Below the pieces are notes generated by a model that worked only from the letters and a program-made list of their open reading frames with translations, ran no database searches and was not told the origin of the DNA. From Gimesia aquarii (lineage in GTDB: Bacteria; Planctomycetota; Planctomycetia; Planctomycetales; Planctomycetaceae), in contig NZ_CP037422.1 of NCBI RefSeq assembly GCF_007748175.1, positions 5,782,334 to 5,846,333 of the forward strand: DNA of 64,000 nt, read 5' to 3'. Shown in pieces: positions 30,314-50,149 of the stretch. The translations under genes were made by a program, and so were the position numbers. Numbering within the stretch: the stretch's first letter is position 1; each line of letters starts with the position of its first letter.

Positions 30314-30470
30314 ATAAATCGAATTTTGGCTAGAAAATGTAGACGAGTTTGCTCTGAACAATCACAAAAAAGAGTTGTTTTTGCTCCTAAATCCTGATAT
30401 AAACATGAGTTGATGTGATTCTGTTGTACAAGAGCAGATATGTTCTGATTTCGAGCTTGGAGCGTGATTG

Positions 30471-33329
30471 ATGCTACGGCCTGTTCAATCTTTCTACACA
30501 GTGCGTCTAATGTTTCTCATCGTTATGATGTCGGTAGGCTCAGTAACAGATGTAGATGCCAAAGATGCTTCGTCAAAAAGTAAAGGGATTGAGTTTTTCG
30601 AAGCAAAAATTCGTCCTGTATTGATAAAACACTGCTATGAATGCCATGCTTCGAACTCCAAGTCGATTCGGGGTGGATTACTACTCGATACTCGTGCTGG
30701 AACTCTGAAGGGAGGAGATTCAGGGGCAATTTTCACTCCTGGAAAGCCAGAAGAAAGCCTGCTATTAGAATCACTCCGGTTTGAGAGTTTTGAAATGCCT
30801 CCTTCCGGCAAGCTGGCACCGGAAATCATTGCTGATTTTGAGACATGGATTAAAATGGGAGCCCCTGATCCAAGGGATGGGAAAAGCAAGATCGTCAGGC
30901 AAAGTATTGATATTGAAAAAGGAAAACAATTCTGGGCTTTTCAACCTGTCAAAAAACAATCCCTTCCCAAAGTTTCTGATCCTGCTTGGAGTCGATCAGA
31001 TATTGATCGATTGATTCGGTTTGCCCAGGAAAAACAAAATCTGACTACAGCGCCCGATGCAGATCGTACCACTTTAGTACGTCGACTCTATTATGATTTG
31101 ATAGGTTTGCCGCCAACGCCGAATCAAATTGATCAATTTCTAAGTGATGAGAGTCCTGATGCTGTGGCACGTCTAGTTGATCAACTACTTGCATCGCCTC
31201 ATTTTGGAGAGCGTTGGGGCCGTTACTGGTTGGACGTTGCCCGCTATTCACAATCAACGGGTGGAGGTCGCTCATTACTATACCAGTCAGCCTGGAGATA
31301 CCGCAATTATATCATTGATGCTTTTAATCAGGATAAGCCCTTCGATGAATTTATCATGGAGCAAATTGCCGGAGATTTGCTGGAATCGAACAACTATTTA
31401 CAAAAACGTGAGCAGTTATTTGCAACCGCGTTTCTGGTTCTAGGACCAACTAATTATGAGCAACAAGACAAAGAACAATTGCGCATGGACGTCATTGACG
31501 AGCAGATTCAAACTGTAGGTCGCGCCTTTCTGGCGATGACCCTCGGTTGTGCTCGTTGCCACGATCATAAATTTGACCCGATTCCTGCAACGGATTATTA
31601 CGCTTTGGCCGGGATCTTTCGCAGTACAAAAGTCTTAACTCCCGGAAATGTTTCCGGCTGGACAAAACGGCCTCTCCCGCTTTCGCCAGAGAAGCAGCGT
31701 ACAAGAGATGAGTACATTCAAGTGATGGCGCGACTCACCGCTGCTCAGAAAGCTAAGCAGAGTCATTTGAAGAAATTAGAGCAGAAATTAAATACGATCA
31801 CACTTGATGATTCTGCTGCCACACTTGTTGGAAACTGGCAGAAATCGACGTTTTTTAAAGACTACGTTGGCCAGGGTTATATTCACGACCAGCACGCTGC
31901 CAAAGGGAAAAAGCAGGTTAAATTTTCTCCAAAGCAGCTCAAGTCAGGCCGCTATGATGTGCAGTTGGCATATAACTCTGCCGAATCTCGCGCCTCACGT
32001 GTTCCTGTCACGATTAAAACATCAAAAGGAGAGCATACCGTTTATGTGAACCAGAGAATCGAACCGACTGATGGTGCATTCTCCTCTTTGGGTGAATTTG
32101 AATTTTCTGGTACAAAAAATGAGGAAGTCATTATTTCAAATGCAGGAACTGATGGCTATGTGATTGTGGATGCCATTCGTTTCATTTCGGCACCGGTCAG
32201 TCAAGATTCTGAAAAGCAGAAAGAGGTAGCGGTAAACCAATACAAACACACTTTGCTTAAAATTAAAGAGACAAAAAAACAACTTAAGTCACTCAAACTT
32301 GAGATCGCAAACAAAAAGAAAGCAGCCCCACCAAAAGTTGCAGAAATCATGTCCATTTATGAAGACGAGCAACCGGGAGACTATCATCTTCTCATTAGAG
32401 GTGATGTGCATAATCTCGGAAAAAAAGTCCCCCGTGGATTTCTTTCTGTCGCTCAGGTACAAGAATCTATCATGATCCCAAAAGTCTCAAGTGGACGGCT
32501 TGAAATGGCCCAATGGATAGCCAACCCACAAAACCCTTTAACGGCTCGTGTTTATGTGAATCGAATTTGGCGCCATTTGTTCGGAGTCGGTTTAGTGCGC
32601 ACTGTCGATAATTTCGGCACACGAGGGGAGTTACCTTCCCATCCCGAATTACTAGATCATTTAGCCTTGAAGCTGATTGAGAGTGGGTGGTCAACCAAAT
32701 CGATGATTCGTGAAATCGTGCTTTCCAAAACGTATCAACTTTCAAGTGAATCGACTGCGAAACAACGTACGGCTGATCCAGACAATCGACTGTTAACCCA
32801 TCAAAATCACAAGCGTCTTGATGCGGAAGCAATTCGAGATACGATTTTGTTTGTTAGTGGAAATCTTGACCTTTCTCGACAAAACCAGACAATCAAAGAG
32901 AACACAAAATCAGAATATGGTTATCAATTTACGAATAATTATCGAAGTGTCTATATCCCCGTCTTTCGTAATCGATTGCACGAGCTATTGGCCATATTTG
33001 ACTTTCCGGATCCCAATTTGTCTGTAGGAAACCGTAATACAAGTACCTTGTCAACTCAGGCCCTCTATCTGATGAATAACCCTTTTGTGATCAATCAATC
33101 ACAAAAGCTTGCGAAACGGTTGATTGAAGAATTTTCCGAAGATCAATCTTCTCGTATTGACGCACTGTTTCAAATGACTCTCGGGCGGTTACCCAATTCG
33201 AATGAAAAAATGGGGATGGAACGGTTTTTAAGCGAGGCAAAATTGAAAGGCGGAGCATCTGAAAGAGAAGCCTGGACTGCAGCCTGTCAAACAGTGATTG
33301 CCTGTATTGATTTTCGATATATCAAATAA
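30471..33329 (+). CDS. PSCyt1-DUF1549-DUF1553 protein with inserted beta domain
   Basis: This 952-residue exported protein has an N-terminal signal, then a PSCyt1 cytochrome-like segment with CYECH (Cys55, Cys58, His59) and the MPPSGKL methionine loop. DUF1549 follows, with CARCH (Cys360, Cys363, His364) and DHKFDPIPATDYYAL, and then DUF1553 (NPLTARVYVNRIWRHLFG). Between them, about residues 460-570, lies a beta-rich insert (GRYDVQLAYNSAESRAS, GYVIVDAIRF) that resembles golvesin or xanthan-lyase C-terminal carbohydrate-binding-like modules. The ATG at 30471 is eight bases after GGAG; the TTG before it is not needed. It differs from the upstream paralogue by having PSCyt1 instead of an Ig-like domain. 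Confidence 0.9.
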   Translation: MLRPVQSFYTVRLMFLIVMMSVGSVTDVDAKDASSKSKGIEFFEAKIRPVLIKHCYECHASNSKSIRGGLLLDTRAGTLKGGDSGAIFTPGKPEESLLLESLRFESFEMPPSGKLAPEIIADFETWIKMGAPDPRDGKSKIVRQSIDIEKGKQFWAFQPVKKQSLPKVSDPAWSRSDIDRLIRFAQEKQNLTTAPDADRTTLVRRLYYDLIGLPPTPNQIDQFLSDESPDAVARLVDQLLASPHFGERWGRYWLDVARYSQSTGGGRSLLYQSAWRYRNYIIDAFNQDKPFDEFIMEQIAGDLLESNNYLQKREQLFATAFLVLGPTNYEQQDKEQLRMDVIDEQIQTVGRAFLAMTLGCARCHDHKFDPIPATDYYALAGIFRSTKVLTPGNVSGWTKRPLPLSPEKQRTRDEYIQVMARLTAAQKAKQSHLKKLEQKLNTITLDDSAATLVGNWQKSTFFKDYVGQGYIHDQHAAKGKKQVKFSPKQLKSGRYDVQLAYNSAESRASRVPVTIKTSKGEHTVYVNQRIEPTDGAFSSLGEFEFSGTKNEEVIISNAGTDGYVIVDAIRFISAPVSQDSEKQKEVAVNQYKHTLLKIKETKKQLKSLKLEIANKKKAAPPKVAEIMSIYEDEQPGDYHLLIRGDVHNLGKKVPRGFLSVAQVQESIMIPKVSSGRLEMAQWIANPQNPLTARVYVNRIWRHLFGVGLVRTVDNFGTRGELPSHPELLDHLALKLIESGWSTKSMIREIVLSKTYQLSSESTAKQRTADPDNRLLTHQNHKRLDAEAIRDTILFVSGNLDLSRQNQTIKENTKSEYGYQFTNNYRSVYIPVFRNRLHELLAIFDFPDPNLSVGNRNTSTLSTQALYLMNNPFVINQSQKLAKRLIEEFSEDQSSRIDALFQMTLGRLPNSNEKMGMERFLSEAKLKGGASEREAWTAACQTVIACIDFRYIK

Positions 33330-33368
33330 TCACCAGCAAAATACTTAATCATAAATCTGGAGCCTTTC

Positions 33369-34808
33369 ATGTTGGATGCGAATCGTCCTGTTTCAAGAAG
33401 GAATCTATTACGATCATCAGCTTGTGGCTTTGGCTCGCTGGCATTCTCAGGTTTGCTTTCGCAAACCCGCGCTAATACCACTAGTGTTGCTCTTCAAAAT
33501 CCCTTGGCACCACAAGAGCCGATGTTTACTCCTCGCGCCAAACGGATCATTTTCATCTTTATGCAGGGGGGGCCGAGTCACGTTGATACGTTTGACTATA
33601 AACCACTGCTTGAAAAGAAAAATGGCGCCGAACTGGAATTTAAGAATTCACGCACGATTGCCAAAACTGGAACTTTTGGTAAAGAAAAGGTCATGCAGTC
33701 TCCCTGGAAGTTTCGGCAATACGGTGAGTGTGGCCATTGGGTGTCGGACCTTTTTCCGGAGATTGGTCGGCAAGTAGACGACCTGTGTTTCATTCACAGT
33801 ATGCATACTAATGGCGTCGCACATGGTCCTAGCACTTTGTTTCTGCACACTGGAACGACAAATTTGATCATGCCCTCAGTTGGTTCCTGGATCACCTATG
33901 GATTGGGAACAGAAAACGAGAATATCCCTGGCTTCATTACAATTTCTCCCTCTTCAGCGAATGGGGGGCCACGAAATTACTCGAATGCATTCCTTCCCTC
34001 ACATTTTCAGGGAACCACACTGGGAAGAGCAGGGCAACCAGCCAGGGAAGCACGCTTCAATAATATCAAAAATCAGCAATGGTCTCTCAATAAGCAGCGT
34101 CAACAACTTTCACTTCTTCAGTCATTGAATCAGAGCCAGCTGCAAACACACAAAGAAGATGATGAGTTGTCTGCTGTGATCAATTCCTATGAGCTTGCAT
34201 TTCGCATGCAGCAACACGCACCCGGACTCACGGATCTTTCTGGTGAGTCAAAAGCAACACTTGATATGTATGGAATTGATCAGAAAGAAACGGAAGACTT
34301 TGGGCGTCAGTGTCTTTTAGCACGCCGCATGGCAGAGGCGGGAACTCGTTACATTCAGGTGAACTATGCAGACAATGGCAACAATCCACGTTGGGACCAG
34401 CACAGCAAAATACAACGTCATGAAATTCACGCCAAAGCCACAGATAAACCTGTTGCTGGTCTGATTCAAGACTTAAAGCAACGAGGTCTTCTGGAAGATA
34501 CATTAGTTTGGTGGGGAGGAGAATTTGGCAGAAATCCCTTTATGCAGGGAGCCGATGGCCGCGATCATAATCCAAAAGGTTTTACCCATTTTCTATGTGG
34601 TGCAGGTGTAAAATCTGGATTCTCCTATGGAGCCACCGATGAGTTTGGTCATGAATCTATCGAAAATAAAGTCCATATGCATGATATGCATGCAACCTTG
34701 CTCCACCTGCTGGGGGTTGATCACGAACGTCTGACATATCGTCATGCTGGTCGCGATTTTCGCTTAACTGATGTTGAAGGACATGTGAAAAAAGATCTGT
34801 TTTCCTGA
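33369..34808 (+). CDS. DUF1501 protein with twin-arginine signal (copy 2)
   Basis: The 479-residue protein has a Tat signal (Arg10-Arg11, SRRNLLRSSACGFG). The DUF1501 core shows IFIFMQGGPSHVDTFDYKP, HTGTTNLIMPSVGSW, GEFGRNPFMQGADGRDHNPKGFT and the C-terminal HHAGRDF-like YRHAGRDFRLTDVEG. It is about 45 residues longer than the first copy and only distantly similar outside the metal-site motifs, so the two pairs are old paralogues rather than a recent duplication. It follows its DUF1549/DUF1553 partner by 39 bp. Its stop is only 4 bp from the stop of the convergent aldolase gene, with no room for a terminator between them. Confidence 0.92.
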   Translation: MLDANRPVSRRNLLRSSACGFGSLAFSGLLSQTRANTTSVALQNPLAPQEPMFTPRAKRIIFIFMQGGPSHVDTFDYKPLLEKKNGAELEFKNSRTIAKTGTFGKEKVMQSPWKFRQYGECGHWVSDLFPEIGRQVDDLCFIHSMHTNGVAHGPSTLFLHTGTTNLIMPSVGSWITYGLGTENENIPGFITISPSSANGGPRNYSNAFLPSHFQGTTLGRAGQPAREARFNNIKNQQWSLNKQRQQLSLLQSLNQSQLQTHKEDDELSAVINSYELAFRMQQHAPGLTDLSGESKATLDMYGIDQKETEDFGRQCLLARRMAEAGTRYIQVNYADNGNNPRWDQHSKIQRHEIHAKATDKPVAGLIQDLKQRGLLEDTLVWWGGEFGRNPFMQGADGRDHNPKGFTHFLCGAGVKSGFSYGATDEFGHESIENKVHMHDMHATLLHLLGVDHERLTYRHAGRDFRLTDVEGHVKKDLFS

Positions 34809-36423: not shown

Positions 36424-36605
36424 AAATAAAACCTATTTATTAAGAATTTAATTAGTCCTCAACAATGAGTCCACTTAATAAATTGCTAAATATACAGTAT
36501 TTTATAAGCAGAGAGGGTTTATAGTTGAAATGCGATTTTCATTATAATAGTATTTTATTGAAATTCAACACTATTGAATTGGTTTTGACTCAAGGAGATC
36601 AAATA
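36424..36605. promoter_or_regulatory. Divergent promoter region of the GntR-controlled locus
   Basis: The 182-bp A/T-rich gap carries TATAAT at 36543-36548 and the short palindrome TTGAAATTCAA at 36558-36568. These lie upstream of AAGGAG at 36592-36597, the ribosome site of the beta-helix gene. The palindrome just past the -10 box is a candidate operator for the GntR protein, but it does not match the usual FadR-type consensus well, so this is inference. Confidence 0.4.
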
Positions 36606-38093
36606 TTGCGATTTATTATCTTCGTGATCATTTTCAATATCCATTTGTCGGCTTCAGTTCTTTCGGCACGCGATATCCGAGTTGATCCAACATCTGGCGA
36701 TGATTCATCAACCTTTGGTCCGGTAAAGTCTATAAGTCGGGCGATTCGTATTGCAAAACCTGGCGACACGATTCACCTGCTTCCCATTGTCTACCGAGAC
36801 TACGCCGGTTTTTATGGAGTGCAGGGCGAACCTGGTAAGCCGATCACCCTTGATGGACATGGTGCAATACTAGAAGGCTCTGACCCACTCGATCCAAGGC
36901 AATGGCAAGAAGTTCAGCCTGGATTGTTTCGTTGCAGCAACCTATTGCCCCATCTTAACAATGCCATTATTAGTCGGTGGTTTTTCCTCTGGAACGGCAA
37001 GATGAATCATATGGGGCGTACTTCAAAAGGGCCGAGTGCACCTCTGAAAAAGCCTGAGGAACTAGAATCTGGAGAGTGGACTTTCATAGAAGATGTTAGC
37101 AGGAAACAATCTGAATCAAACAAAATATTCGGTGACTTCTATCTAAAGCTATCACCGGGAATGGAGCTTGCCAAAGCGAATATTTTTGTGCCCACTCGAT
37201 CAGCTGGCGTACAATTCAGCAGCAACAAAGAAAATCATAATGCGCATTTAATCATTCGCAACCTGACAGCGACACATCCCTATAACGATGGATTTAACAT
37301 TCACGGCCATTGTGAAGATGTATTATTTGAAAATATTCGTGCTATTGAGTGTGGTGATGATGGTATTAGCGCACACGAAACAGCCCAATATCGTGTCGAC
37401 GGTTTCGTCTCGATTGGCAATTCAACTGGAATCTGTGATACAGGAGACAGTCAGACGAGTTACAATCGCGTTTTTATTCGTGATTGCCTTGGGTTCGATC
37501 TCTACTTCCTTGATACAGGGCAATATTCTTTGAGCAATGCCGTAGTGCTTTCATCGGCAGCAAGAACCCTACATGTCACCGGACGTGAGAAAAAACATCG
37601 ACCATGTTCGCTCAATATCGATAATGTCTATATTCGCCGTATGACCGATGTGAATGAAGTTCGTGTATCCAAGCACTCACGATTTGATGCACGCCGACTT
37701 ACGTTGCAGGGGCTCAAGTTTCAAGCAACGGGTGGAGAAGTCAAACTACATAATTCGATGATGAGAAGTGAACCTAAAGCGAAACAAAAACCCGCGCGAT
37801 ATGACTACATTGCAGCCACCGAGTCACGGGGGCCTTTAGTATCAGAAGTGATCTTGTGGCGGGACGTGCGATGGATTGCAGATCACAATATTTATGATGT
37901 CAGCCTGTTTCGCTTTGATAAAACAACTTACACGAAGAGTAATTTTAGTGAATTCCAAACGCTGACAGGTCAAGATACTCACTCACATTTCCAGAGCTCT
38001 ACCGCAAACAATGAAAAAACAGGGGCTGATTTGAGAATGCTCGAGAAACTCGTAGTACCTGAAAATGACCAACCTCTGCTCCGGACCCCTTAG
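36606..38093 (+). CDS. Secreted right-handed beta-helix (pectate-lyase-like) protein
   Basis: The 495-residue protein is predicted to be exported (MRFIIFVIIFNIHLSASVLS). Its repeats are typical of parallel beta-helix proteins: GPVKSISRAIRIAKPGDTIHLLP, then PITLDGHGAILEG, then NDGFNIHGHCEDVLFENIRAIECGDDGISAHE. That pattern occurs in polysaccharide lyases, GH28-like and DUF1565 proteins. No lyase catalytic triad is obvious. The frame is open back to 36525, but TTG at 36606, eight bases after AAGGAG, starts exactly at a signal peptide and is preferred. It is the first gene of the divergent operon. It probably binds or cleaves an extracellular polysaccharide. Confidence 0.8.
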   Translation: MRFIIFVIIFNIHLSASVLSARDIRVDPTSGDDSSTFGPVKSISRAIRIAKPGDTIHLLPIVYRDYAGFYGVQGEPGKPITLDGHGAILEGSDPLDPRQWQEVQPGLFRCSNLLPHLNNAIISRWFFLWNGKMNHMGRTSKGPSAPLKKPEELESGEWTFIEDVSRKQSESNKIFGDFYLKLSPGMELAKANIFVPTRSAGVQFSSNKENHNAHLIIRNLTATHPYNDGFNIHGHCEDVLFENIRAIECGDDGISAHETAQYRVDGFVSIGNSTGICDTGDSQTSYNRVFIRDCLGFDLYFLDTGQYSLSNAVVLSSAARTLHVTGREKKHRPCSLNIDNVYIRRMTDVNEVRVSKHSRFDARRLTLQGLKFQATGGEVKLHNSMMRSEPKAKQKPARYDYIAATESRGPLVSEVILWRDVRWIADHNIYDVSLFRFDKTTYTKSNFSEFQTLTGQDTHSHFQSSTANNEKTGADLRMLEKLVVPENDQPLLRTP

Positions 38094-38120: not shown

Positions 38121-39794
38121 ATGAACAGACTACAATTGCAGGTTGCATCTCTAGTTCCCACATGGGGAAAACATACACTCCTGCTAGTGTTATTCGTTTT
38201 TTCATTGCAGGTCAGTCCGCAAACTGTCAGAGGAGAAACGCAAAACGCGCACAACTTGAAATCATCAGTTCGTGTCTCAGTTTCAGGTGGTCCGGAGGTG
38301 GAAGAGGCTGTTTTTTTCTCTTTCGATGATCATGCGATTCCGTGGCGAGATAATTTGCAACTTACTCCTGTAGAAGCGAAGAAACATCCTGCCAATCCTG
38401 TTCTACGCCGTGGACCTGCTGGTGCACCGGATCATGGTCATGCGATACTCTATGGAAGTGTACTCCAAATGGATGGAAAGTTTCGCATGTGGTATCTGGG
38501 GATGTTCGAAACCGAGATCAAAGCAGGGCAGGCGCCTGGTTGGTGGCGCCCCATGTGTTATGCCGAAAGTACGGATGGAGTCAATTGGATCAAACCCAAA
38601 TTAGGACTCGTTGAATTCAATGGAAACAAGCAGAACAATATCTGCCTGGTGGAGTCTACGGTTCCTTCATTGACTAAGGTGAATGATTTTCTAACCGTAA
38701 TGTACGATCCCAAAGACCCTGATCCAAATCGTCGTTATAAATGCGTTTATATCGCACATCCACCATTTGATGATGTTCGAGGTGGACGTAGTCGAATTGG
38801 GCCTGATGAGAGACGATGGGGGGCATTTATCAGTGCAACAAGTGCTGATGGGTTGAGTTGGAAAGTGATAGGAGACCGTCCCATGAATGCTGGCGGCGAA
38901 CGTTTCGAAGTCTCAGGGTTGTATCACTACAATGGATTTTATTACGCCACAGGACAGTTGATCTCTCCATGGACATGGAGAATGGATGGAAGTGATATCG
39001 GGCGGGTCATGCTCACGTACCGTTCATCTGATTTCAAAAATTGGTCACGAGCGAAAGCAACTTCTTTTGCAAGGCCAGGTCAGTTCACGGCCAAACCAAT
39101 CACTGGCCAACAAACACACATGGGAGCGGGGCTCTGGAATCGCGGTAATGCAATCATCGGGCTTTATGGCATGTGGCAGGATGCGACAAAGAAACCAAAA
39201 GAGAGCGAATATTGGAATGAAGGCGTCACCGTCGATTTGGGATTGATTGTGAGTAACGACGGGATTCATTTTCGAGAGCCAGTCGCAGATCACAAAGTAA
39301 TCTCGCGAGGCAAAAAAAATGAGTGGGACAATACTGCGCTTCTGCAGGGGCATGCTTTTGCGAATATCGGTGATCAAACAATGATGTGGTATTCACATTG
39401 GGATACTGGTGGCAAACTACGAAATATGGAAATTGGCCTCGCAACACTCCGGCGCGATGGATTCGGCTATCTTGCTCGAAAGGTCTCTGATTCTGCTGCG
39501 TATTTTGCAACAGCACCATTCAAAATTCGAGGTGATGCTAAACTTTTTGTGAATGTAGAGGGGGTCTCTTCAACTGCGCCTCTCACCGTTGAATTGCTTG
39601 ACGAACGCGCTAAGCCACTCGCTGGATTCTCTGGTAAAGATGCTGCTCAAATCAAAAAATCTGGCACACATCTCGAAGTGATCTGGCCAGGTTCACATGA
39701 CTGGTTACCTGCCAATAGGAACATCTCAGTCAAAGTGAGTTATCCAAAAGCAAATAGTGCCAAAGTATATGCTGTTTATGTTGGAAAGAATTAA
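38121..39794 (+). CDS. Secreted beta-propeller protein, GH32/GH43-like
   Basis: The 557-residue protein has a signal peptide (to about residue 38, QTVRGET). It then has repeated propeller blades recognisable by MDGKFRMWYLGM, YAESTDGVNWIKPKLGLVEF, ATSADGLSWKVIGDRP, YRSSDFKNWSRA and VSNDGIHFREP. This is the five-bladed beta-propeller pattern of GH32/43/68/DUF4185 proteins. It is followed by a small C-terminal beta domain (residues about 455-555). Acidic residues suitable for glycosidase catalysis are present, but the triad cannot be assigned by eye. It is 28 bp after the beta-helix gene and likely co-transcribed. Confidence 0.82.
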   Translation: MNRLQLQVASLVPTWGKHTLLLVLFVFSLQVSPQTVRGETQNAHNLKSSVRVSVSGGPEVEEAVFFSFDDHAIPWRDNLQLTPVEAKKHPANPVLRRGPAGAPDHGHAILYGSVLQMDGKFRMWYLGMFETEIKAGQAPGWWRPMCYAESTDGVNWIKPKLGLVEFNGNKQNNICLVESTVPSLTKVNDFLTVMYDPKDPDPNRRYKCVYIAHPPFDDVRGGRSRIGPDERRWGAFISATSADGLSWKVIGDRPMNAGGERFEVSGLYHYNGFYYATGQLISPWTWRMDGSDIGRVMLTYRSSDFKNWSRAKATSFARPGQFTAKPITGQQTHMGAGLWNRGNAIIGLYGMWQDATKKPKESEYWNEGVTVDLGLIVSNDGIHFREPVADHKVISRGKKNEWDNTALLQGHAFANIGDQTMMWYSHWDTGGKLRNMEIGLATLRRDGFGYLARKVSDSAAYFATAPFKIRGDAKLFVNVEGVSSTAPLTVELLDERAKPLAGFSGKDAAQIKKSGTHLEVIWPGSHDWLPANRNISVKVSYPKANSAKVYAVYVGKN

Positions 39795-39803
39795 GGCAAG
39801 ACT

Positions 39804-42182
39804 ATGAACGCATCCGTGAGTCAAGCTGCTAATGAAATCAATCCATATGTCTGGGCAACAATCAATGATGAAGATCTCAAACTGTTCGATCAACAGTTAA
39901 AGAGTTTTGTTCCACCAAATTCATTTGATGCACATGCACATCTTTGGCGTACTGCCGACCTAGGAACACTGACTCCACCACTGGCGGCGGCAGGGCCTTC
40001 TGAAGTTACTCGGGCAGTATATGATGAAAGACTTTCACTCTGGATGCCGGAACGGTGTCCAACAGGGGGGTTGTTTTTTCCATTTCCCACACGTACATTG
40101 AATGTTGAAGCGGCAAACCAGTTTTTGGCAGATCAGGTGAAAGAGTCACCAGATTCGCGTGGACTGATGATTGTCACACCACGTCAAAAGCCAGAAGCAG
40201 TTGAGCAACAAGTCGTTAAAGATGGTTTTGTTGGATTCAAAGTATATCACTTATTTGCCGAACGAGAAGACACACTATTTGCACCCACGGAAGAATTTCT
40301 CCCAGAATGGGCCTGGGAACTGGCGCATCGGTATGAGCTGGTGATCATGTTGCATATGGTGCTTCCACGAGCGTTGGCAGAGCCTGCAAACCAAACATAC
40401 ATTCGTCAGCATTGCGAGCGATATCCTGGTGCGAAATTGATTCTTGCCCACGCAGCACGTGGCTTTTGTGGTCGCCATACAGTCGAAGGTATCTCTTCAT
40501 TACGAGGATTGGAAAACGTTTATTTTGATACTTCTGCCGTATGTGAACCAGAGGCGTTCGAGGCGATTCTGAAAGTTTTTGGTCCCACCCGACTCCTTTT
40601 TGGTGCCGATTTTTGTGTTACGGAAATGCGCAGCCGTTGTGTCAACCTGGGAGATGGTTTTTTATGGCTCGACGAGATTCGACCAGATTTCAGCCACTCT
40701 CGATTTGCAAAACCAACGCTTCTCGGGATCGAGTCACTACTGGCACTGAAGCAGGCATGCAAAAATCAGCATCTGACTGATGGGGATGTGGAAGAAGTCT
40801 TCTGCCTGGGAGCCAGACGACTGCTCAAGTTACCGCTGACTCAAAACCCGCCGGACGTACAAGCTGTCTATCGCGAAGCAAAAGAGATCTTCCCTGGTGG
40901 TACACAATTACTAAGTAAACGACCAGAAATGTTTGCGCCAGATCAGTGGCCTGCTTACTATCGTGAAGCCAGAGGCTGTGAAATCATTGATATCGAAGGA
41001 CGCCATTTCATCGATATGAGCCTTGGTGGAATTCTTGCCTGTATTCTTGGCTACAGTGATCCAGATGTGAATTCAGCTGTGATTCGTCGTGTTACTCTTG
41101 GATCGATGGCGACTTTACAAACGGCTGACGAACTAGAACTCTCAAAATTACTGCTCAAAATTCATCCCTGGGCACAAAATGCAAGGTTTACTCGCGCGGG
41201 TGGTGAGTCAATGGTTGTTGCGGTTCGTATCGCACGCGCATTTACTGGACGCGATAAGGTCGCAATTTGCGGCTATCATGGTTGGCATGATTGGTATCTC
41301 GCCGCAAATTTAACTGTAAATGAAAATGACCAAAAACAACAAATCGATCATTTAACCGGTCACCTTCTACCGGGCCTTGAACCACGTGGCGTTCCCACCA
41401 ATTTAGCGGGTACCGCGTTGACGTTCCATTATAACAAACTTGATGAACTCGACGAAATCATTACGAAACACGGTCATGAATTAGCTGCGGTAGTAATGGA
41501 ACCAACTCGAAAAACAGATCCCGATCCAAATTTTCTTGAAGGCGTCCGTGAGCGCTGTGATCGCCTTGATACACCATTAATCTTCGATGAGATTTCAAGT
41601 GGTTGGCGACTCTGCCTAGGTGGCGCACACCGTAATTATGGCGTTGAACCGGATCTAGCGGTCTTCGCCAAAGCACTCGGTAATGGCTTTCCCATCGGGG
41701 CAATCATTGGAACACAAGCAGTCATGCAAGCCGCACAAGAATCATTTATCTCCAGTACATTCTGGACAGAAGGTGTGGGACCCGCCGCAGCAGTAGCATG
41801 CGTAAAGAAACAAATGGAATTTGATATTCCTGCTCATCTGGCGCATATTGGATCTCTCGCCATTGAAGGCTGGGAAAAACTTGGATGTAAGCACAAAGTA
41901 CCTGTTAATACGGGAGGTCATCCAGCGATGGCGGTACTGACATTCGATCATCCAGAAGCAGCAGCACTGACTACATTAATGACTGCTCGCATGCTGAATC
42001 ACGGCTTTCTTGCCGGTGGTGCTTTTAACGCAAGCCTTGCACATGAGCCACGACATGTCGAAGCCTATCTTGCCGCATTAGATGAAGTATTTGCAGAACT
42101 TGCCACTGCAATCCAAGACGGAGAGATTCGAAAACGGATTGGTGGCCCAGTAAAACACACAGGATTTGCGAGGCTGACTTAG
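39804..42182 (+). CDS. Amidohydrolase / class III aminotransferase fusion
   Basis: A single 792-residue chain joins two enzymes. Residues about 30-340 form an amidohydrolase-2-type TIM barrel with the metal motif FDAHAHLW, MLHMVLPR, ILAHAARG and LLFGADF. Residues about 350-785 form a PLP-dependent class III aminotransferase of the glutamate-1-semialdehyde aminomutase type. It has FPGGTQLLSKRPE, YHGWHDWY and FDEISSGWR, and the PLP lysine is Lys623 in FAKALGNG. It has no signal peptide, so it is cytoplasmic. The gene starts 9 bp after the propeller gene and ends the operon. The frame is clean through the junction, so this is a real fusion and not an assembly join. A role in catabolism of an amino or acylated sugar acid is inferred. 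Confidence 0.9.
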   Translation: MNASVSQAANEINPYVWATINDEDLKLFDQQLKSFVPPNSFDAHAHLWRTADLGTLTPPLAAAGPSEVTRAVYDERLSLWMPERCPTGGLFFPFPTRTLNVEAANQFLADQVKESPDSRGLMIVTPRQKPEAVEQQVVKDGFVGFKVYHLFAEREDTLFAPTEEFLPEWAWELAHRYELVIMLHMVLPRALAEPANQTYIRQHCERYPGAKLILAHAARGFCGRHTVEGISSLRGLENVYFDTSAVCEPEAFEAILKVFGPTRLLFGADFCVTEMRSRCVNLGDGFLWLDEIRPDFSHSRFAKPTLLGIESLLALKQACKNQHLTDGDVEEVFCLGARRLLKLPLTQNPPDVQAVYREAKEIFPGGTQLLSKRPEMFAPDQWPAYYREARGCEIIDIEGRHFIDMSLGGILACILGYSDPDVNSAVIRRVTLGSMATLQTADELELSKLLLKIHPWAQNARFTRAGGESMVVAVRIARAFTGRDKVAICGYHGWHDWYLAANLTVNENDQKQQIDHLTGHLLPGLEPRGVPTNLAGTALTFHYNKLDELDEIITKHGHELAAVVMEPTRKTDPDPNFLEGVRERCDRLDTPLIFDEISSGWRLCLGGAHRNYGVEPDLAVFAKALGNGFPIGAIIGTQAVMQAAQESFISSTFWTEGVGPAAAVACVKKQMEFDIPAHLAHIGSLAIEGWEKLGCKHKVPVNTGGHPAMAVLTFDHPEAAALTTLMTARMLNHGFLAGGAFNASLAHEPRHVEAYLAALDEVFAELATAIQDGEIRKRIGGPVKHTGFARLT

Positions 42183-42896: not shown

Positions 42897-44552
42897 TTAC
42901 CAGAACATCAAGCGATAGTGGTTGTAGATCTCTTCCGGACCTAAGATTCGTTTGTAAAGCGCGAATTCATCAATCGCACCAACAAACTGTCGCAGTGTAT
43001 TCACAATTCTGAGTTGACCAAGATATAGCTTGTAAGTTGATGGCTCATTCTCCACATTTATAAAAACGCGTCTGGTAATTGCTCCATCAATATACATCTC
43101 AAGCATATCATTTTTTTTAACGACAACAACCTGCATCCATTGACCAGGAGTACATCTTTCTTTCGAGAAGAGATTTGCCCCAGTAAATCCATCAGGGCTG
43201 GGAGGATATCGTTGGAGAAAACGGATGTTGCCGAGATCGTGTACAAGATGTGAAAGGTGTCGTTTAGTCATGATCTCAATAACGTTTAGATGTTTAATTC
43301 CCACATCGTCATCTTCTTGAACGACCGACAGACAAGTCATGTGTGATAATCGATCTGGTTTTAACCAAAACTCGATTGAAAAAGGTCCTTCATTAAGAAG
43401 TGGAAATGGATCTGCAGACATGATCATGCGAGGGTTTCGCGAGAGATTAAATCGAGCATAACCATCGACAATCTGTAAACTGTTTGGCTCATCGAAATTT
43501 CGAATGAGGTTGGCTGGCCATTGAGGACTCATTTCATTACGAACCTGCCCATGGTCTTCAGATTCAAAACGCCAGTAGACCAGAGGCTCTGATTGTTTAA
43601 TCGCGTCTACATAATCCTCTCTCACCGGTAAGGCTACCGATGGAGTTTCAACAACAGTTGTAGAATTGTCGAGTTTGTTTCTGATAGCCATTCTGTTTTG
43701 ATCAACGTGTGCGCGTTGTGACTCATTTACATTCTGACTGGCGATGGACTTTCCATCATTTCCGAGAATAGAGACTTTTGCTTTACCTTTAATCACATCG
43801 ATATCAGTTGAACCATCTTGATCGACCTGAATTCCAACCTCTGTTCCTAAATCAACAACAGCAGCCTCAGGTGCATTGATAACAAAGTCAATTGCTGATT
43901 CAGGAATCTGTGCGGTTGCCCTTCCTGACCGTAGAGTCGCAGCCGACCTTGAGATCATATCAATCTCTGCCGGTCCAATAATCGTAATTTGCGCCCCGCT
44001 GAAAAATTCAAGTTTGATTTTTCCATGAGGAATTTTAAGCGTACCAGCCTTAAAACATCGCCCCAGTTTCAATTCATTCGAATCGATTCCTTCAACATAA
44101 GTTAAAATTGCAATATCTGGAGTTTCTTTCTTCTTATTATTATTCGAAGTGTAAATGATACTAGGATTTGTTTTTTTGGGAGTTTCAGTGAGCCTCTTTC
44201 TGGGAGGGAGAGCATTATTTGAAACTGAGTTTATTAAGAAAGAGAGAACAAACAAAAAACAGACAGTACAGAGAGTAATAACGATGAATTTTCTATTGGA
44301 TTTCAGCCGTAGCGGAATTTTTAATGGTACGATACCAGATGAATGCGTACTGGAATTCGGTGCTGAGCATTCTTCATAAAGCGCAGTTTCAAGGTCGACT
44401 AACTGGACATATTGATCTCGAAAAGCAGTATCAGACTGGAGGCGGATTTGAATTGTCTCAAACTCTTCCTCGGAGATATGCCCATCAAGTAAACGTCGAA
44501 TGAGATCGACATCACTTTCGGGGATTTGCTCATCAGGAATTGATGCTGGCAT
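42897..44552 (-). CDS. FecR-domain and LamG-like membrane protein
   Basis: The 551-residue protein has a cytoplasmic N-terminal helical part (LIRRLLDGHISEEEFETI, about 15-60) and one membrane helix (about 90-110, FIVITLCTVCFLFVLSFLI). A periplasmic FecR-type beta domain follows (about 160-300, GTLKIPHGKIKLEFFSGAQITIIGPAEIDM, DLGTEVGI), then a concanavalin-like LamG domain (about 330-550, INGALTRR-like DGAITRRVFIN, FVGAIDEFALYKRIL). It follows the ECF gene by 13 bp, with AAAGGA before its ATG. The pair is the common planctomycete sigma/FecR-LamG module. The protein presumably acts as an anti-sigma factor with a ligand-binding ectodomain. Confidence 0.85.
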   Translation of the reverse strand: MPASIPDEQIPESDVDLIRRLLDGHISEEEFETIQIRLQSDTAFRDQYVQLVDLETALYEECSAPNSSTHSSGIVPLKIPLRLKSNRKFIVITLCTVCFLFVLSFLINSVSNNALPPRKRLTETPKKTNPSIIYTSNNNKKKETPDIAILTYVEGIDSNELKLGRCFKAGTLKIPHGKIKLEFFSGAQITIIGPAEIDMISRSAATLRSGRATAQIPESAIDFVINAPEAAVVDLGTEVGIQVDQDGSTDIDVIKGKAKVSILGNDGKSIASQNVNESQRAHVDQNRMAIRNKLDNSTTVVETPSVALPVREDYVDAIKQSEPLVYWRFESEDHGQVRNEMSPQWPANLIRNFDEPNSLQIVDGYARFNLSRNPRMIMSADPFPLLNEGPFSIEFWLKPDRLSHMTCLSVVQEDDDVGIKHLNVIEIMTKRHLSHLVHDLGNIRFLQRYPPSPDGFTGANLFSKERCTPGQWMQVVVVKKNDMLEMYIDGAITRRVFINVENEPSTYKLYLGQLRIVNTLRQFVGAIDEFALYKRILGPEEIYNHYRLMFW

Positions 44553-44565
44553 TTGAAAAGATCCT

Positions 44566-45087
44566 TTATATCCTGTCCAACGAAGCGACTCGGCGTTCGA
44601 TACAATCAGTAATTAATTTTCGCACTCGGTCTAGCCGTCGATAGAGTGCTTTGACAGTACGTCCTTGTTCCTCAGCCAGTGACTTAATCGTTGATGAATC
44701 TGAATATCTTCGCTCCAGCATGTTTCGATCTTCTGTGGAAAGTTCAGCCAGACATTGTTTGAGTGCAGAACGCCGCTGGCTCAAATATGATTCTTGTTCT
44801 TTTCGTGATTGAGTCAGCAGCGACATGATCTCTTCACTGAATATCAGCCTGCTACGGGCGCATTCCTTACGAAAATTAAGCGCTTCAAAATAGGCGAAAC
44901 GAGTTGCCCATGGCAGGAATTCTCTATTTTGGTCGTATTCCTCGAATTTTTCCCACAACACAAGTGCTGTTCGTTGTAACACTTCTTCTGCATCATCCCG
45001 ACGAGGGATCAGCATCATTATATACCGTAACAGTTCACGATCATAAGTGACCATTAACTTGGCAAAAACATTTCCAGAAGGCTTCAT
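44566..45087 (-). CDS. ECF sigma factor, Rhodopirellula/Verrucomicrobium-type family
   Basis: The 173-residue protein has sigma region 2 (about 15-75, DRELLRYIMMLIPRRDDAEEVLQRTALVLWEKF, cut here by family rather than copied; key FLPWATRFAYFEALNFRK) and region 4 (about 110-165, LSTEDRNMLERRY, GRTVKALYRRLDRVR). The spacing and the LPWA segment match the planctomycete/verrucomicrobial ECF family. It is co-transcribed with the FecR/LamG gene. The ATG at 45085-45087 has no clear ribosome site. Confidence 0.88.
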   Translation of the reverse strand: MKPSGNVFAKLMVTYDRELLRYIMMLIPRRDDAEEVLQRTALVLWEKFEEYDQNREFLPWATRFAYFEALNFRKECARSRLIFSEEIMSLLTQSRKEQESYLSQRRSALKQCLAELSTEDRNMLERRYSDSSTIKSLAEEQGRTVKALYRRLDRVRKLITDCIERRVASLDRI

Positions 45088-49069: not shown

Positions 49070-50149
49070 ATGCCCCGCTTGCAATCTGTAAAAGCGTTTA
49101 TCATTCTTATGTTTCCTATGTACTTTGGTTTTTTTGCTGAAACAGCGTTAATGGGAAAAGCTCCCCAAGCAACGACTCCTGAGCAACCTGGGCTTGTGAT
49201 GCAAGAGTTTGTTTATAATGAAGCTCCATTTCCCTCTTGCCACGCTTCGACGATTGCAGAGACACCAGAAGGATTAGTCTGTGCATTTTTTGGTGGCACC
49301 GCAGAAAAAAATCGAGATGTGGAAATCTGGCTTTCCCGCAACACAGGGGCAGGGTGGTCGGCACCCGTCAGTGTTGCTGATGGCATCCAAGACGCTAATC
49401 ATCGCTGGCCCTGCTGGAACCCTGTCTTATTTCAAACGAAACCGGGGACCTTATTGCTTTTTTACAAAGTGGGACCCAATCCAAGTGAATGGTGGGGGAT
49501 GCTGAAGATTTCTCACGACCACGGAAAGACCTGGAGTAAAGCGACACGCTTACCGGATGGTTTTGTTGGTCCAGTAAAAAATAAGCCCTTTCTTCTGTCT
49601 GATGGAACTCTTTTGTGTCCCGCGAGCACGGAACATGATGGCTGGCAGTTACAGATGGAGTGGACTCCCGATTTAGGAAAGACATGGCATCGGACTGGCC
49701 CACTCAACGATGGCCATAAAGTTGGCGCGATTCAACCGTCCGTACTTCGGTATGGAGATCGCTTACAAATTCTCTGCCGAAGTCGGAGATTAGGTAAAAT
49801 TGTCGAAGCATGGTCTGATGATAATGGGCGATCCTGGAGTGAAGTCACTGCCACTTCGCTTCCCAATCCCAATAGCGGTACAGACGCGGTCACACTCAAA
49901 GATGGTCGTTCACTTTTAGTGTATAACCCAACAACGAAAGGCAGAAGCCCTTTACATGTCGCAATTTCTTCAGATGGAAAAAACTGGAAAACGGGCCTTG
50001 TTCTTGAAAACCAAAAAGGTGAGTACTCCTACCCCGCAGTCATTCAAACGGCTGACGGAAAAGTACATATTACCTATACCTGGAAGCGAGAGTTGATCAA
50101 ACATGTTGTCCTGGATCCTGCCAAGCTGAATCTCAAAGAGATAAATTGA
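49070..50149 (+). CDS. Secreted BNR-repeat sialidase-like protein
   Basis: The 359-residue protein has a signal peptide (about residues 1-28) and the six-bladed sialidase fold. Asp-box motifs are seen in several blades: SHDHGKTW, TPDLGKTW, SDDNGRSW and SSDGKNW. A conserved arginine-triad context is suggested by FPSCHASTIAETPEG and SLLVYNPT, but catalytic Tyr/Glu cannot be assigned by eye. Planctomycete sialidase-like proteins are often annotated as exo-alpha-sialidases; the sugar is unknown. AAGGTA lies six bases upstream of the ATG. It precedes plsC by 12 bp. Confidence 0.85.
   Translation: MPRLQSVKAFIILMFPMYFGFFAETALMGKAPQATTPEQPGLVMQEFVYNEAPFPSCHASTIAETPEGLVCAFFGGTAEKNRDVEIWLSRNTGAGWSAPVSVADGIQDANHRWPCWNPVLFQTKPGTLLLFYKVGPNPSEWWGMLKISHDHGKTWSKATRLPDGFVGPVKNKPFLLSDGTLLCPASTEHDGWQLQMEWTPDLGKTWHRTGPLNDGHKVGAIQPSVLRYGDRLQILCRSRRLGKIVEAWSDDNGRSWSEVTATSLPNPNSGTDAVTLKDGRSLLVYNPTTKGRSPLHVAISSDGKNWKTGLVLENQKGEYSYPAVIQTADGKVHITYTWKRELIKHVVLDPAKLNLKEIN

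What the first reader, a model, noticed from the sequence alone, without database searches (positions are those of the whole stretch)
39804..42182. Amidohydrolase fused to a class III aminotransferase in one frame
Two PLP- and metal-dependent enzymes normally found apart are one 792-residue protein, with both active-site motif sets intact. The fusion implies substrate channelling between hydrolysis (or decarboxylation) and transamination or amine shift. Its substrate is unknown and I know of no described pathway with this pairing.
Basis: partly seen in the sequence, partly recalled or inferred. Interest (0 to 1): 0.72.

Follow-up and report, generated by a model that had tools for sequence, protein, structure and literature searches.

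The report
Conserved amidohydrolase–aminotransferase fusion enzyme
A single bacterial protein joins a metal-dependent hydrolase-type domain to a nitrogen-transferring enzyme; the pairing is real, recurs in many bacterial phyla, and probably works in a so far undescribed pathway that breaks down an amino-bearing (perhaps sugar-derived) acid.

Summary
ORF 39804-42182 is one unbroken 792-residue frame with an Amidohydro_2 domain (residues 42-342) and a class III PLP domain (382-738). It is no frameshift artefact: 44 of 150 genomes of its family (own included) carry it full length without a stop, and it occurs in at least nine phyla. Site residues are invariant in 43 of 43 aligned fusions. The PLP subfamily is joined to two different amidohydrolase subfamilies and, in two genomes, to a D-2-hydroxyacid dehydrogenase. 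In 15 loci PLP and amidohydrolase genes are separate but close, 11 of them with an Fe/2-oxoglutarate dioxygenase (PhyH); PhyH is in 14 of 28 Planctomycetaceae loci against 0 of 40 control stretches. In about two dozen other genomes the separate genes lie far apart. Ten genus relatives have a pyruvate aldolase overlapping the fusion's start. Stand-alone PLP relatives lie in nonulosonic-acid loci (26 of 41), the fusion does not (0 of 52). Best reading: bifunctional enzyme of a catabolic pathway that deaminates an amino (sugar) acid and feeds a pyruvate aldolase. Substrate, reactions and channelling are unproven; eight paper searches listed no description.

The parts
39804..42182 (+). Fusion protein, amidohydrolase (N-terminal) + class III PLP enzyme (C-terminal), 792 aa
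   Evidence: open in relatives
39927..40829 (+). Amidohydro_2 domain (residues 42-342)
   Evidence: Pfam PF04909; model of residues 20-343, pLDDT 95; nearest solved folds COG2159/COG3618 members
39933..39941 (+). H44-x-H46, first metal-site motif
   Evidence: invariant in 43 of 43; role recalled from the family
40827..40856 (+). Interdomain linker (about residues 342-351)
   Evidence: 8-23 residues in 43 fusions
40947..42017 (+). Class III PLP (aminotransferase fold) domain (residues 382-738)
   Evidence: Pfam PF00202; GSAM-like by sequence and fold
41670..41672 (+). K623, presumed PLP Schiff-base lysine
   Evidence: invariant in 43 of 43; role recalled
38121..39794 (+). Protein of the 'prop1' cluster, secreted-looking by my reading, ends 9 bases before the fusion; no Pfam family; cluster profile matches propeller glycosidases/phosphorylases faintly (best E 4e-4)
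   Evidence: prop1 in 8 of 52 fused loci and 0 of 56 others
36525..38093 (+). Upstream co-directional gene, no Pfam family (secreted and beta-helix-like by my reading only); the TTG start listed is probably too early
   Evidence: homologues near the fusion in L037, L040, L131
35698..36423 (-). GntR/FCD regulator, divergent
   Evidence: PF00392+PF07729; best NCBIfam match NanR subfamily, far below cut-off, 80.5 of 260 bits
34813..35637 (-). HpcH/HpaI-type pyruvate aldolase
   Evidence: PF03328; in 10 of the 19 relatives' loci examined the homologue lies directly upstream of the fusion with overlapping ORFs

Best explanation
The protein is a bifunctional, probably cytosolic enzyme of a so far undescribed catabolic pathway. 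The amidohydrolase domain (metal-dependent TIM barrel) opens or trims a small amino-bearing acid, most likely by hydrolysing a lactone or amide, less likely by decarboxylation. The class III PLP domain removes the amino group by transamination and leaves a 2-oxo acid, which a pyruvate aldolase (HpcH/HpaI in the window; DHDPS-type or RraA-type in other loci) splits into pyruvate and an aldehyde. In many genomes a PhyH-type Fe/2-oxoglutarate dioxygenase belongs to the same set and may install the hydroxyl group that the retro-aldol step needs. Secreted-looking propeller/BNR proteins and SSF or MFS transporters nearby suggest that the starting material comes from outside the cell, perhaps from a glycan. 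SHOWN: one frame, intact sites, wide conservation, joining of the PLP subfamily to two amidohydrolase subfamilies and to a D-2-hydroxyacid dehydrogenase, repeated neighbourhood with the dioxygenase, aldolase in part of the loci. INFERRED: catabolic direction, order of steps, transamination rather than lyase or mutase chemistry, sugar-acid nature of the substrate.
For: Conservation and intact sites. Amidohydrolase tree: 53 fused rows (49 different sequences) form one clade (98/97), 5 other fused rows lie far off beside unfused genes; 0% of 200 bootstrap trees need only one change. In 15 mapped loci the two genes are separate but close, 11 of 15 with PhyH: PhyH-PLP-AH in L117, PLP-PhyH-AH in L127 and L130 and in L192-L195. 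PhyH lies 20 and 58 bases upstream of the fusion in L123 and L124. In L192 and L193 the PLP domain follows an N-terminal D-2-hydroxyacid dehydrogenase (best PDB match 1wwk, E 1.5e-54) in one 782-783-aa ORF, with PhyH and AH next, and homologues of that dehydrogenase lie in fused loci L061, L064, L071: this suits 2-oxo/2-hydroxy acid chemistry. PhyH in 14 of 28 Planctomycetaceae loci against 0 of 40 control stretches, with queries only from other phyla; SSF 8 of 28 vs 0 of 40; SDR 9 of 28 vs 2 of 40. HpcH aldolase overlapping the fusion start in 10 same-genus relatives and present in 8 of 52 fused loci. DHDPS and FAH-type enzymes near separate pairs, RraA-type aldolase beside a PLP-PhyH pair in L121. 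Glutamate dehydrogenase beside the PLP gene in L116 suits transamination with glutamate recycling. The prop1 protein of L064 is 63% identical to the window's although the fusions are 41% identical.
Against: No locus holds every step. Pyruvate aldolases (HpcH or DHDPS) were found in only 8 of 52 fused, 6 of 15 separate and 2 of 41 PLP-only loci. In the window's genus HpcH directly upstream is missing in L008, L009, L010, L013 and L014, and none was seen in the 19 kb of L125. HpcH enrichment over controls is weak (4 of 28 vs 1 of 40, p 0.09; 4 vs 0 at the stricter threshold); AKR, MFS and the Gfo16 family are 0 of 28. In about two dozen genomes the separate PLP and amidohydrolase matches are on different contigs or far apart (G034: 1.6 Mb); some may be paralogues. 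Several fused loci (L142, L149, L150) show no recognised pathway neighbour. PhyH is absent from the window slice searched and from 44 of 52 fused loci. Test loci include close relatives, so p-values overstate. Fold neighbours of the amidohydrolase domain are mixed decarboxylases, hydratases and lactonases at TM about 0.5-0.6, so its reaction is not predicted.
Confidence: 0.45

Rival explanations
1. Same catabolic module, but the PLP domain is a lyase or mutase: it eliminates ammonia from a beta-hydroxy amine (as class III-fold lyases such as PbfA do, recalled) or shifts the amine to the neighbouring carbon like GSAM, giving the oxo compound without a co-substrate.
For: Nearest families are GSA aminomutases (PRK06209 206.6 bits, HemL 181.8) and PbfA is among the hits (93.4 bits); best fold GSAM 5i92, 27% identity. 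Beta-elimination on a 2-amino-3-hydroxy acid would give the 2-oxo-3-deoxy acid that HpcH-type aldolases use (recalled chemistry).
Against: The equivalog scores are far below cut-off. Glutamate dehydrogenase in one locus speaks for transamination.
Confidence: 0.2
2. The substrate is a nonulosonic (sialic-like) acid or a sugar derived from it: the module is the degradative counterpart of the biosynthetic loci in which stand-alone relatives of the PLP domain occur.
For: 26 of 41 PLP-only loci carry at least one NulO marker gene; NanA-like DHDPS in L140 (194.4 bits, cut-off 281); BNR proteins and SSF symporters in part of the loci; weak NanR-like regulator. A table on Legionella serogroup 6 O-antigen genes lists a 'glutamate-1-semialdehyde 2,1-aminomutase' between PseG and a cytidylyltransferase (PMC3694923, passages only); whether it belongs to this subfamily was not tested.
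Against: No complete NulO degradation set seen in any locus; NanA and NanR scores below cut-off; the PhyH link is unexplained.
Confidence: 0.2
3. The fusion makes an amino sugar for the cell surface, like its stand-alone relatives.
For: Shared PLP subfamily, about 47-57% identity to stand-alone members.
Against: 0 of 52 fused and 0 of 15 separate AT+AH loci hold any of five NulO marker families against 26 of 41 PLP-only loci; the markers are 0 of 28 in the Planctomycetaceae test.
Confidence: 0.07
4. The two domains act on unrelated substrates; the fusion only fixes their dosage, or the amidohydrolase domain is a scaffold.
For: No direct evidence on reactions; channelling untested; separate genes lie far apart in about two dozen genomes.
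Against: Amidohydrolase site residues invariant in 43 of 43; repeated linkage and fusion.
Confidence: 0.08

Closest known systems
Glutamate-1-semialdehyde aminomutase (HemL, PRK06209) and class III aminotransferases
   Same: Fold, PLP lysine, matches over about residues 348-785
   Different: Scores 182-207 bits against cut-offs of 398-527, fused to an amidohydrolase; six other class III matches in the own genome, best 33% identical
Amidohydro_2 enzymes: gamma-resorcylate/dihydroxybenzoate decarboxylase (3s4t, 4qro), LigJ hydratase (2gwg), LigY (5vn5), COG3618 amidohydrolase 4do7 (lactonase type, recalled)
   Same: TIM-barrel fold and conserved His/Asp pattern
   Different: 12-17% identity and TM 0.5-0.6 over the query; best single-sequence PDB hit only E 0.16; no assigned reaction
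Non-phosphorylating sugar-acid pathways (recalled: L-fucose/L-rhamnose: dehydrogenase, Amidohydro_2 lactonase, pyruvate aldolase or FAH hydrolase)
   Same: The same families occur around the module in different loci: SDR, Gfo/Idh, Amidohydro_2, HpcH, DHDPS, FAH
   Different: A PLP enzyme and often a PhyH dioxygenase are added; no dehydratase of those pathways was recognised in the proteins scanned
Pseudaminic/legionaminic acid biosynthesis loci
   Same: Harbour stand-alone members of the same PLP subfamily
   Different: Their marker genes are beside none of 52 fused loci

Membership tests
Class III aminotransferase fold (PF00202) | Profile match above gathering score; PLP lysine with upstream D-E | tested here: met
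   133.6 bits vs 30.5; K623, D595, E596 43 of 43
Amidohydro_2 (PF04909) | Profile match and HxH / H / H / D metal site (pattern recalled) | tested here: met
   57.3 bits vs 26.4; H44, H46, H184, H216, D269 43 of 43
HemL / GSA 2,1-aminomutase | Equivalog score | tested here: not met
   TIGR00713 181.8 vs 527.3; PRK06209 206.6 vs 486
(R)-1-hydroxy-2-aminoethylphosphonate ammonia-lyase PbfA | Equivalog-domain score | tested here: not met
   93.4 vs 525
Amidohydro_2 lactonase (COG3618) or decarboxylase (COG2159) | Clear nearest neighbour by fold | tested here: inconclusive
   both kinds among the best hits, TM 0.5-0.6
Nonulosonic acid biosynthesis locus | NeuB/PseI, PseG, NeuA, CMP-transferase or LegC-like gene nearby | tested here: not met
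   0 of 52 fused loci
Sugar-acid catabolic locus | Pyruvate aldolase with uptake and dehydrogenase genes | tested here: inconclusive
   aldolase in 8 of 52 fused and 6 of 15 separate loci, and in 10 genus relatives outside that count
Substrate-channelling bifunctional enzyme | Intermediate passes between sites | not testable with these tools

The most novel reading that the evidence does not exclude
A widespread, undescribed catabolic route built on coupled Fe/2-oxoglutarate hydroxylation (PhyH), metal-dependent hydrolysis (Amidohydro_2) and PLP deamination, that converts an amino-bearing acid into a 4-hydroxy-2-oxo acid for interchangeable pyruvate aldolases. Its PLP enzyme has been joined, in different lineages, to two kinds of amidohydrolase and to a D-2-hydroxyacid dehydrogenase.
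Probability: 0.35. Interest if true: 0.7.

Novelty: new variant of a known kind. Interest (0 to 1): 0.55.

Why it matters
It points to a catabolic pathway spread over several phyla that my searches did not find described, names its likely parts (dioxygenase, amidohydrolase, PLP enzyme, hydroxyacid dehydrogenase, pyruvate aldolase, transporter), and gives one two-domain protein as a direct entry for substrate screening. It also warns that a PLP subfamily whose best named relatives are glutamate-1-semialdehyde aminomutases has at least two other settings: this module and nonulosonic-acid loci.

Tried and rejected
Frameshift/assembly artefact: rejected. Plain HemL paralogue: rejected by cut-offs. 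Biosynthetic NulO role for the fusion: considered because stand-alone relatives sit there; disfavoured by 0 of 52. A Gfo/Idh family with motif GNGHPYSW looked like a core partner, but was in 7 proteins of the first set and 0 of 28 Planctomycetaceae loci. Assigning the amidohydrolase reaction by fold: inconclusive. The prop1 and beta-helix-like proteins got no family. Paper searches: no listed title or abstract start was about the fusion; listings show at most 20 papers (585 held the terms). I read only passages of PMC3438082 and PMC3694923. The library lacks most subscription journals and preprints.

Counting notes. One search classed 108 of 116 mapped loci (52 fused, 15 separate, 41 PLP-only); 8 Planctomycetaceae loci with one gene only (L118, L119, L120, L121, L122, L126, L129, L147) were left out; the 15 were chosen because both genes are in one locus. 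L044/L149 and L046/L151 are the same contigs, so at most 50 fused loci are distinct. Some PLP-only loci begin at a contig edge (L060 surely) and may be cut fusions. PhyH membership of nine loci was added by hand. '44 of 150', '10 genomes with neighbouring separate genes' and 'about two dozen far apart' are my readings of the capped listing. One search used 28 of 36 Planctomycetaceae loci (those with both genes). One search examined 19 loci (L008-L026): HpcH in 10. Cluster names rest on one or a few members scanned with Pfam/NCBIfam; a pair of genes in four Bacteroidota loci that looks like SusCD was not scanned. Gene calls are simple ORF picks with possibly wrong starts, so 'overlap' is of ORFs. 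'NulO context' in the tree was set by hand and is looser than the 26 of 41. In the PLP tree fused rows are not one clade; losses or further fusions are possible. On checking, two facts were added, one against (far-apart genes) and one for (dehydrogenase fusion); I left the odds as they were.

Full report
What is there. The frame 39804-42182 (+) is a single ORF of 792 residues. It holds an Amidohydro_2 domain at residues 42-342 and a class III PLP domain at 382-738. In 43 aligned fusions D42, H44, H46, K146, H184, H216, R219, D242, D269 and D595, E596, K623 never change. The linker is 8-23 residues. A model from these 43 sequences has mean pLDDT 89.3 and pTM 0.87; the amidohydrolase domain alone, from 32 sequences, reaches pLDDT 95.2.

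Not an artefact. Of 59 genomes searched (own included), 28 had a match at E<=1e-60; 15 of the 16 other genomes of the genus have it, full length. Of 150 genomes of the family (own included), 106 had a match at E<=1e-50 and, by my count of the listing, 44 a single stop-free match over the whole protein. In the named collection the fusion occurs in Planctomycetota, Verrucomicrobiota, Bacteroidota (e.g. Chitinophaga alhagiae, Membranihabitans marinus), Spirochaetota, Armatimonadota, Hydrogenedentota, Lentisphaerota, Acidobacteriota and a Bacillota MAG. Many are MAGs, so single assignments may be wrong.

History. In the tree of the amidohydrolase domain (79 rows, 73 different), 53 fused rows (49 different sequences) form one clade (98/97), while 5 fused rows (L128, L143, L144, L145, L148) lie far away beside unfused genes; none of 200 bootstrap trees needs only one change. 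In the PLP tree those five form one clade (SH-aLRT 99) next to fusions of the window's genus (support 89). So the same PLP subfamily carries two different amidohydrolases: either two fusions or a domain replacement. A third partner turned up on checking: in L192 and L193 (two genomes of one genus) the PLP domain follows an N-terminal D-2-hydroxyacid dehydrogenase in one ORF of 782-783 residues, and PhyH and an amidohydrolase gene come next. Two further genomes of that group (L194, L195) have PLP-PhyH-amidohydrolase without the dehydrogenase part.

Separate genes. The order amidohydrolase-PLP as two ORFs is seen in L047, L089 and L116. PLP-amidohydrolase on the same strand within 5 kb is seen in 10 of the 150 genomes, with about 65-165 bases between the matches in G063, G017 and G085. 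Against this, in about two dozen of the 150 the separate matches are on different contigs or far apart, e.g. G034 (1.6 Mb).

Neighbours. In the window the fusion follows the prop1 gene by 9 bases, which follows another gene of unknown family by 27 bases; a GntR/FCD regulator and an HpcH/HpaI aldolase lie divergently upstream. The same set recurs in L131, and parts of it in L037, L141 and L143. Of 19 relatives' loci with short flanks, 10 (all of the window's genus) have the aldolase directly upstream of the fusion with overlapping ORFs; 9 do not, including 5 of the genus. Bacteroidota loci L058, L067 and L068 carry HpcH, AKR, Gfo/Idh and SDR genes in a row, with SSF or MFS transporters. L133 has SSF, a propeller-cluster gene, HpcH, Gfo/Idh, PhyH, SDR, PLP and amidohydrolase on one strand. 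Fused loci such as L142, L149 and L150 show no such genes.

Control. Families were defined from loci outside Planctomycetota and sought in 28 Planctomycetaceae loci that have both domains and in 40 arbitrary stretches of the same or related genomes. PhyH: 14 of 28 against 0 of 40 (p 3e-7). SSF: 8 of 28 against 0 of 40. SDR: 9 of 28 against 2 of 40 (3 against 1 at the stricter threshold). Gfo/Idh, prop1 and prop2: 4 of 28 each against 0. HpcH: 4 of 28 against 1 of 40 (p 0.09). AKR, MFS, Gfo16 and the nonulosonic-acid families: 0 of 28 and 0 of 40. At the stricter threshold SSF falls to 1 of 28. Some test loci are close kin, so the p-values overstate the case. The PhyH proteins keep H119, D121, H206 and R216/R218 (L068 numbering) in 14 of 14; that these form the Fe/2-oxoglutarate site is recalled.

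Stand-alone relatives. Of 41 PLP-only loci, 26 carry at least one of NeuB/PseI, PseG, two cytidylyltransferase clusters or LegC-like DegT genes; none of 52 fused and none of 15 separate-pair loci do. PseG and PseI pass their NCBIfam cut-offs in L079, and the LegC family in L091. Thus the subfamily has two settings: surface sugar synthesis without the amidohydrolase, and a different, probably degradative, module with it.

How it may work. Three unrelated aldolase families (HpcH, DHDPS, RraA), an FAH hydrolase and D-2-hydroxyacid dehydrogenases appear in different versions of the locus. By established knowledge of these families (recalled) they act on 2-oxo-4-hydroxy, 2,4-dioxo or 2-hydroxy/2-oxo acids. 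A PLP enzyme that turns an amine into the 2-oxo group, and a dioxygenase that adds a hydroxyl group, would both prepare such a substrate. This is inference. PLP lyase/mutase chemistry, a nonulosonic-acid substrate and independent functions are given as rivals with their weights. The amidohydrolase reaction cannot be read from fold neighbours.

What is known. Nearest solved relative of the PLP domain: GSAM 5i92 at 27%; none close for the amidohydrolase domain. Eight paper searches listed no paper on this fusion; only passages of two papers were read. Absence from the listings of this open-licence library is not proof of absence from print.

Noticed in passing
L192:2561-4912 (+), L193:4817-7165 (-): D-2-hydroxyacid dehydrogenase fused in front of a PLP domain of this subfamily, followed by PhyH and an amidohydrolase gene.
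   Followed up: partly
L096:8311-9987 (+): An aldo/keto reductase and a cytidylyltransferase are fused in one 558-aa protein directly upstream of a stand-alone PLP gene in a locus with PseG and NeuB-type genes of an Omnitrophota MAG.
   Followed up: partly
L079, L082, L092, L094, L096 and other PLP-only loci: A recurrent set (Gfo/Idh or AKR), cytidylyltransferase, class III PLP enzyme, PseG, PseI suggests an extra amination step in nonulosonic-acid synthesis; searches listed no paper on it apart from the Legionella gene table.
   Followed up: partly
L061:7134-8264, L132:13629-14945: PLP genes of the D-threonine/3-hydroxyaspartate aldolase kind (PF01168+PF14031) occur beside a fused and a separate form.
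   Followed up: no
G155:C29:1317-3653 and G155:C332: One genome carries a fused copy and a separate PLP/PhyH/amidohydrolase set.
   Followed up: no
window 49070-50149 (+): A strong BNR_2 (sialidase-like) protein lies about 7 kb downstream of the fusion; link unknown.
   Followed up: no
window 42897-45087 (-): Sigma-70 family factor followed by a LamG protein with a FecR match below cut-off, downstream and convergent.
   Followed up: no
window 30468-34808 (+): Planctomycete cytochrome protein (PSCyt1/PSCyt2/PSD1 with a Golvesin_C stretch) and DUF1501 pair.
   Followed up: no
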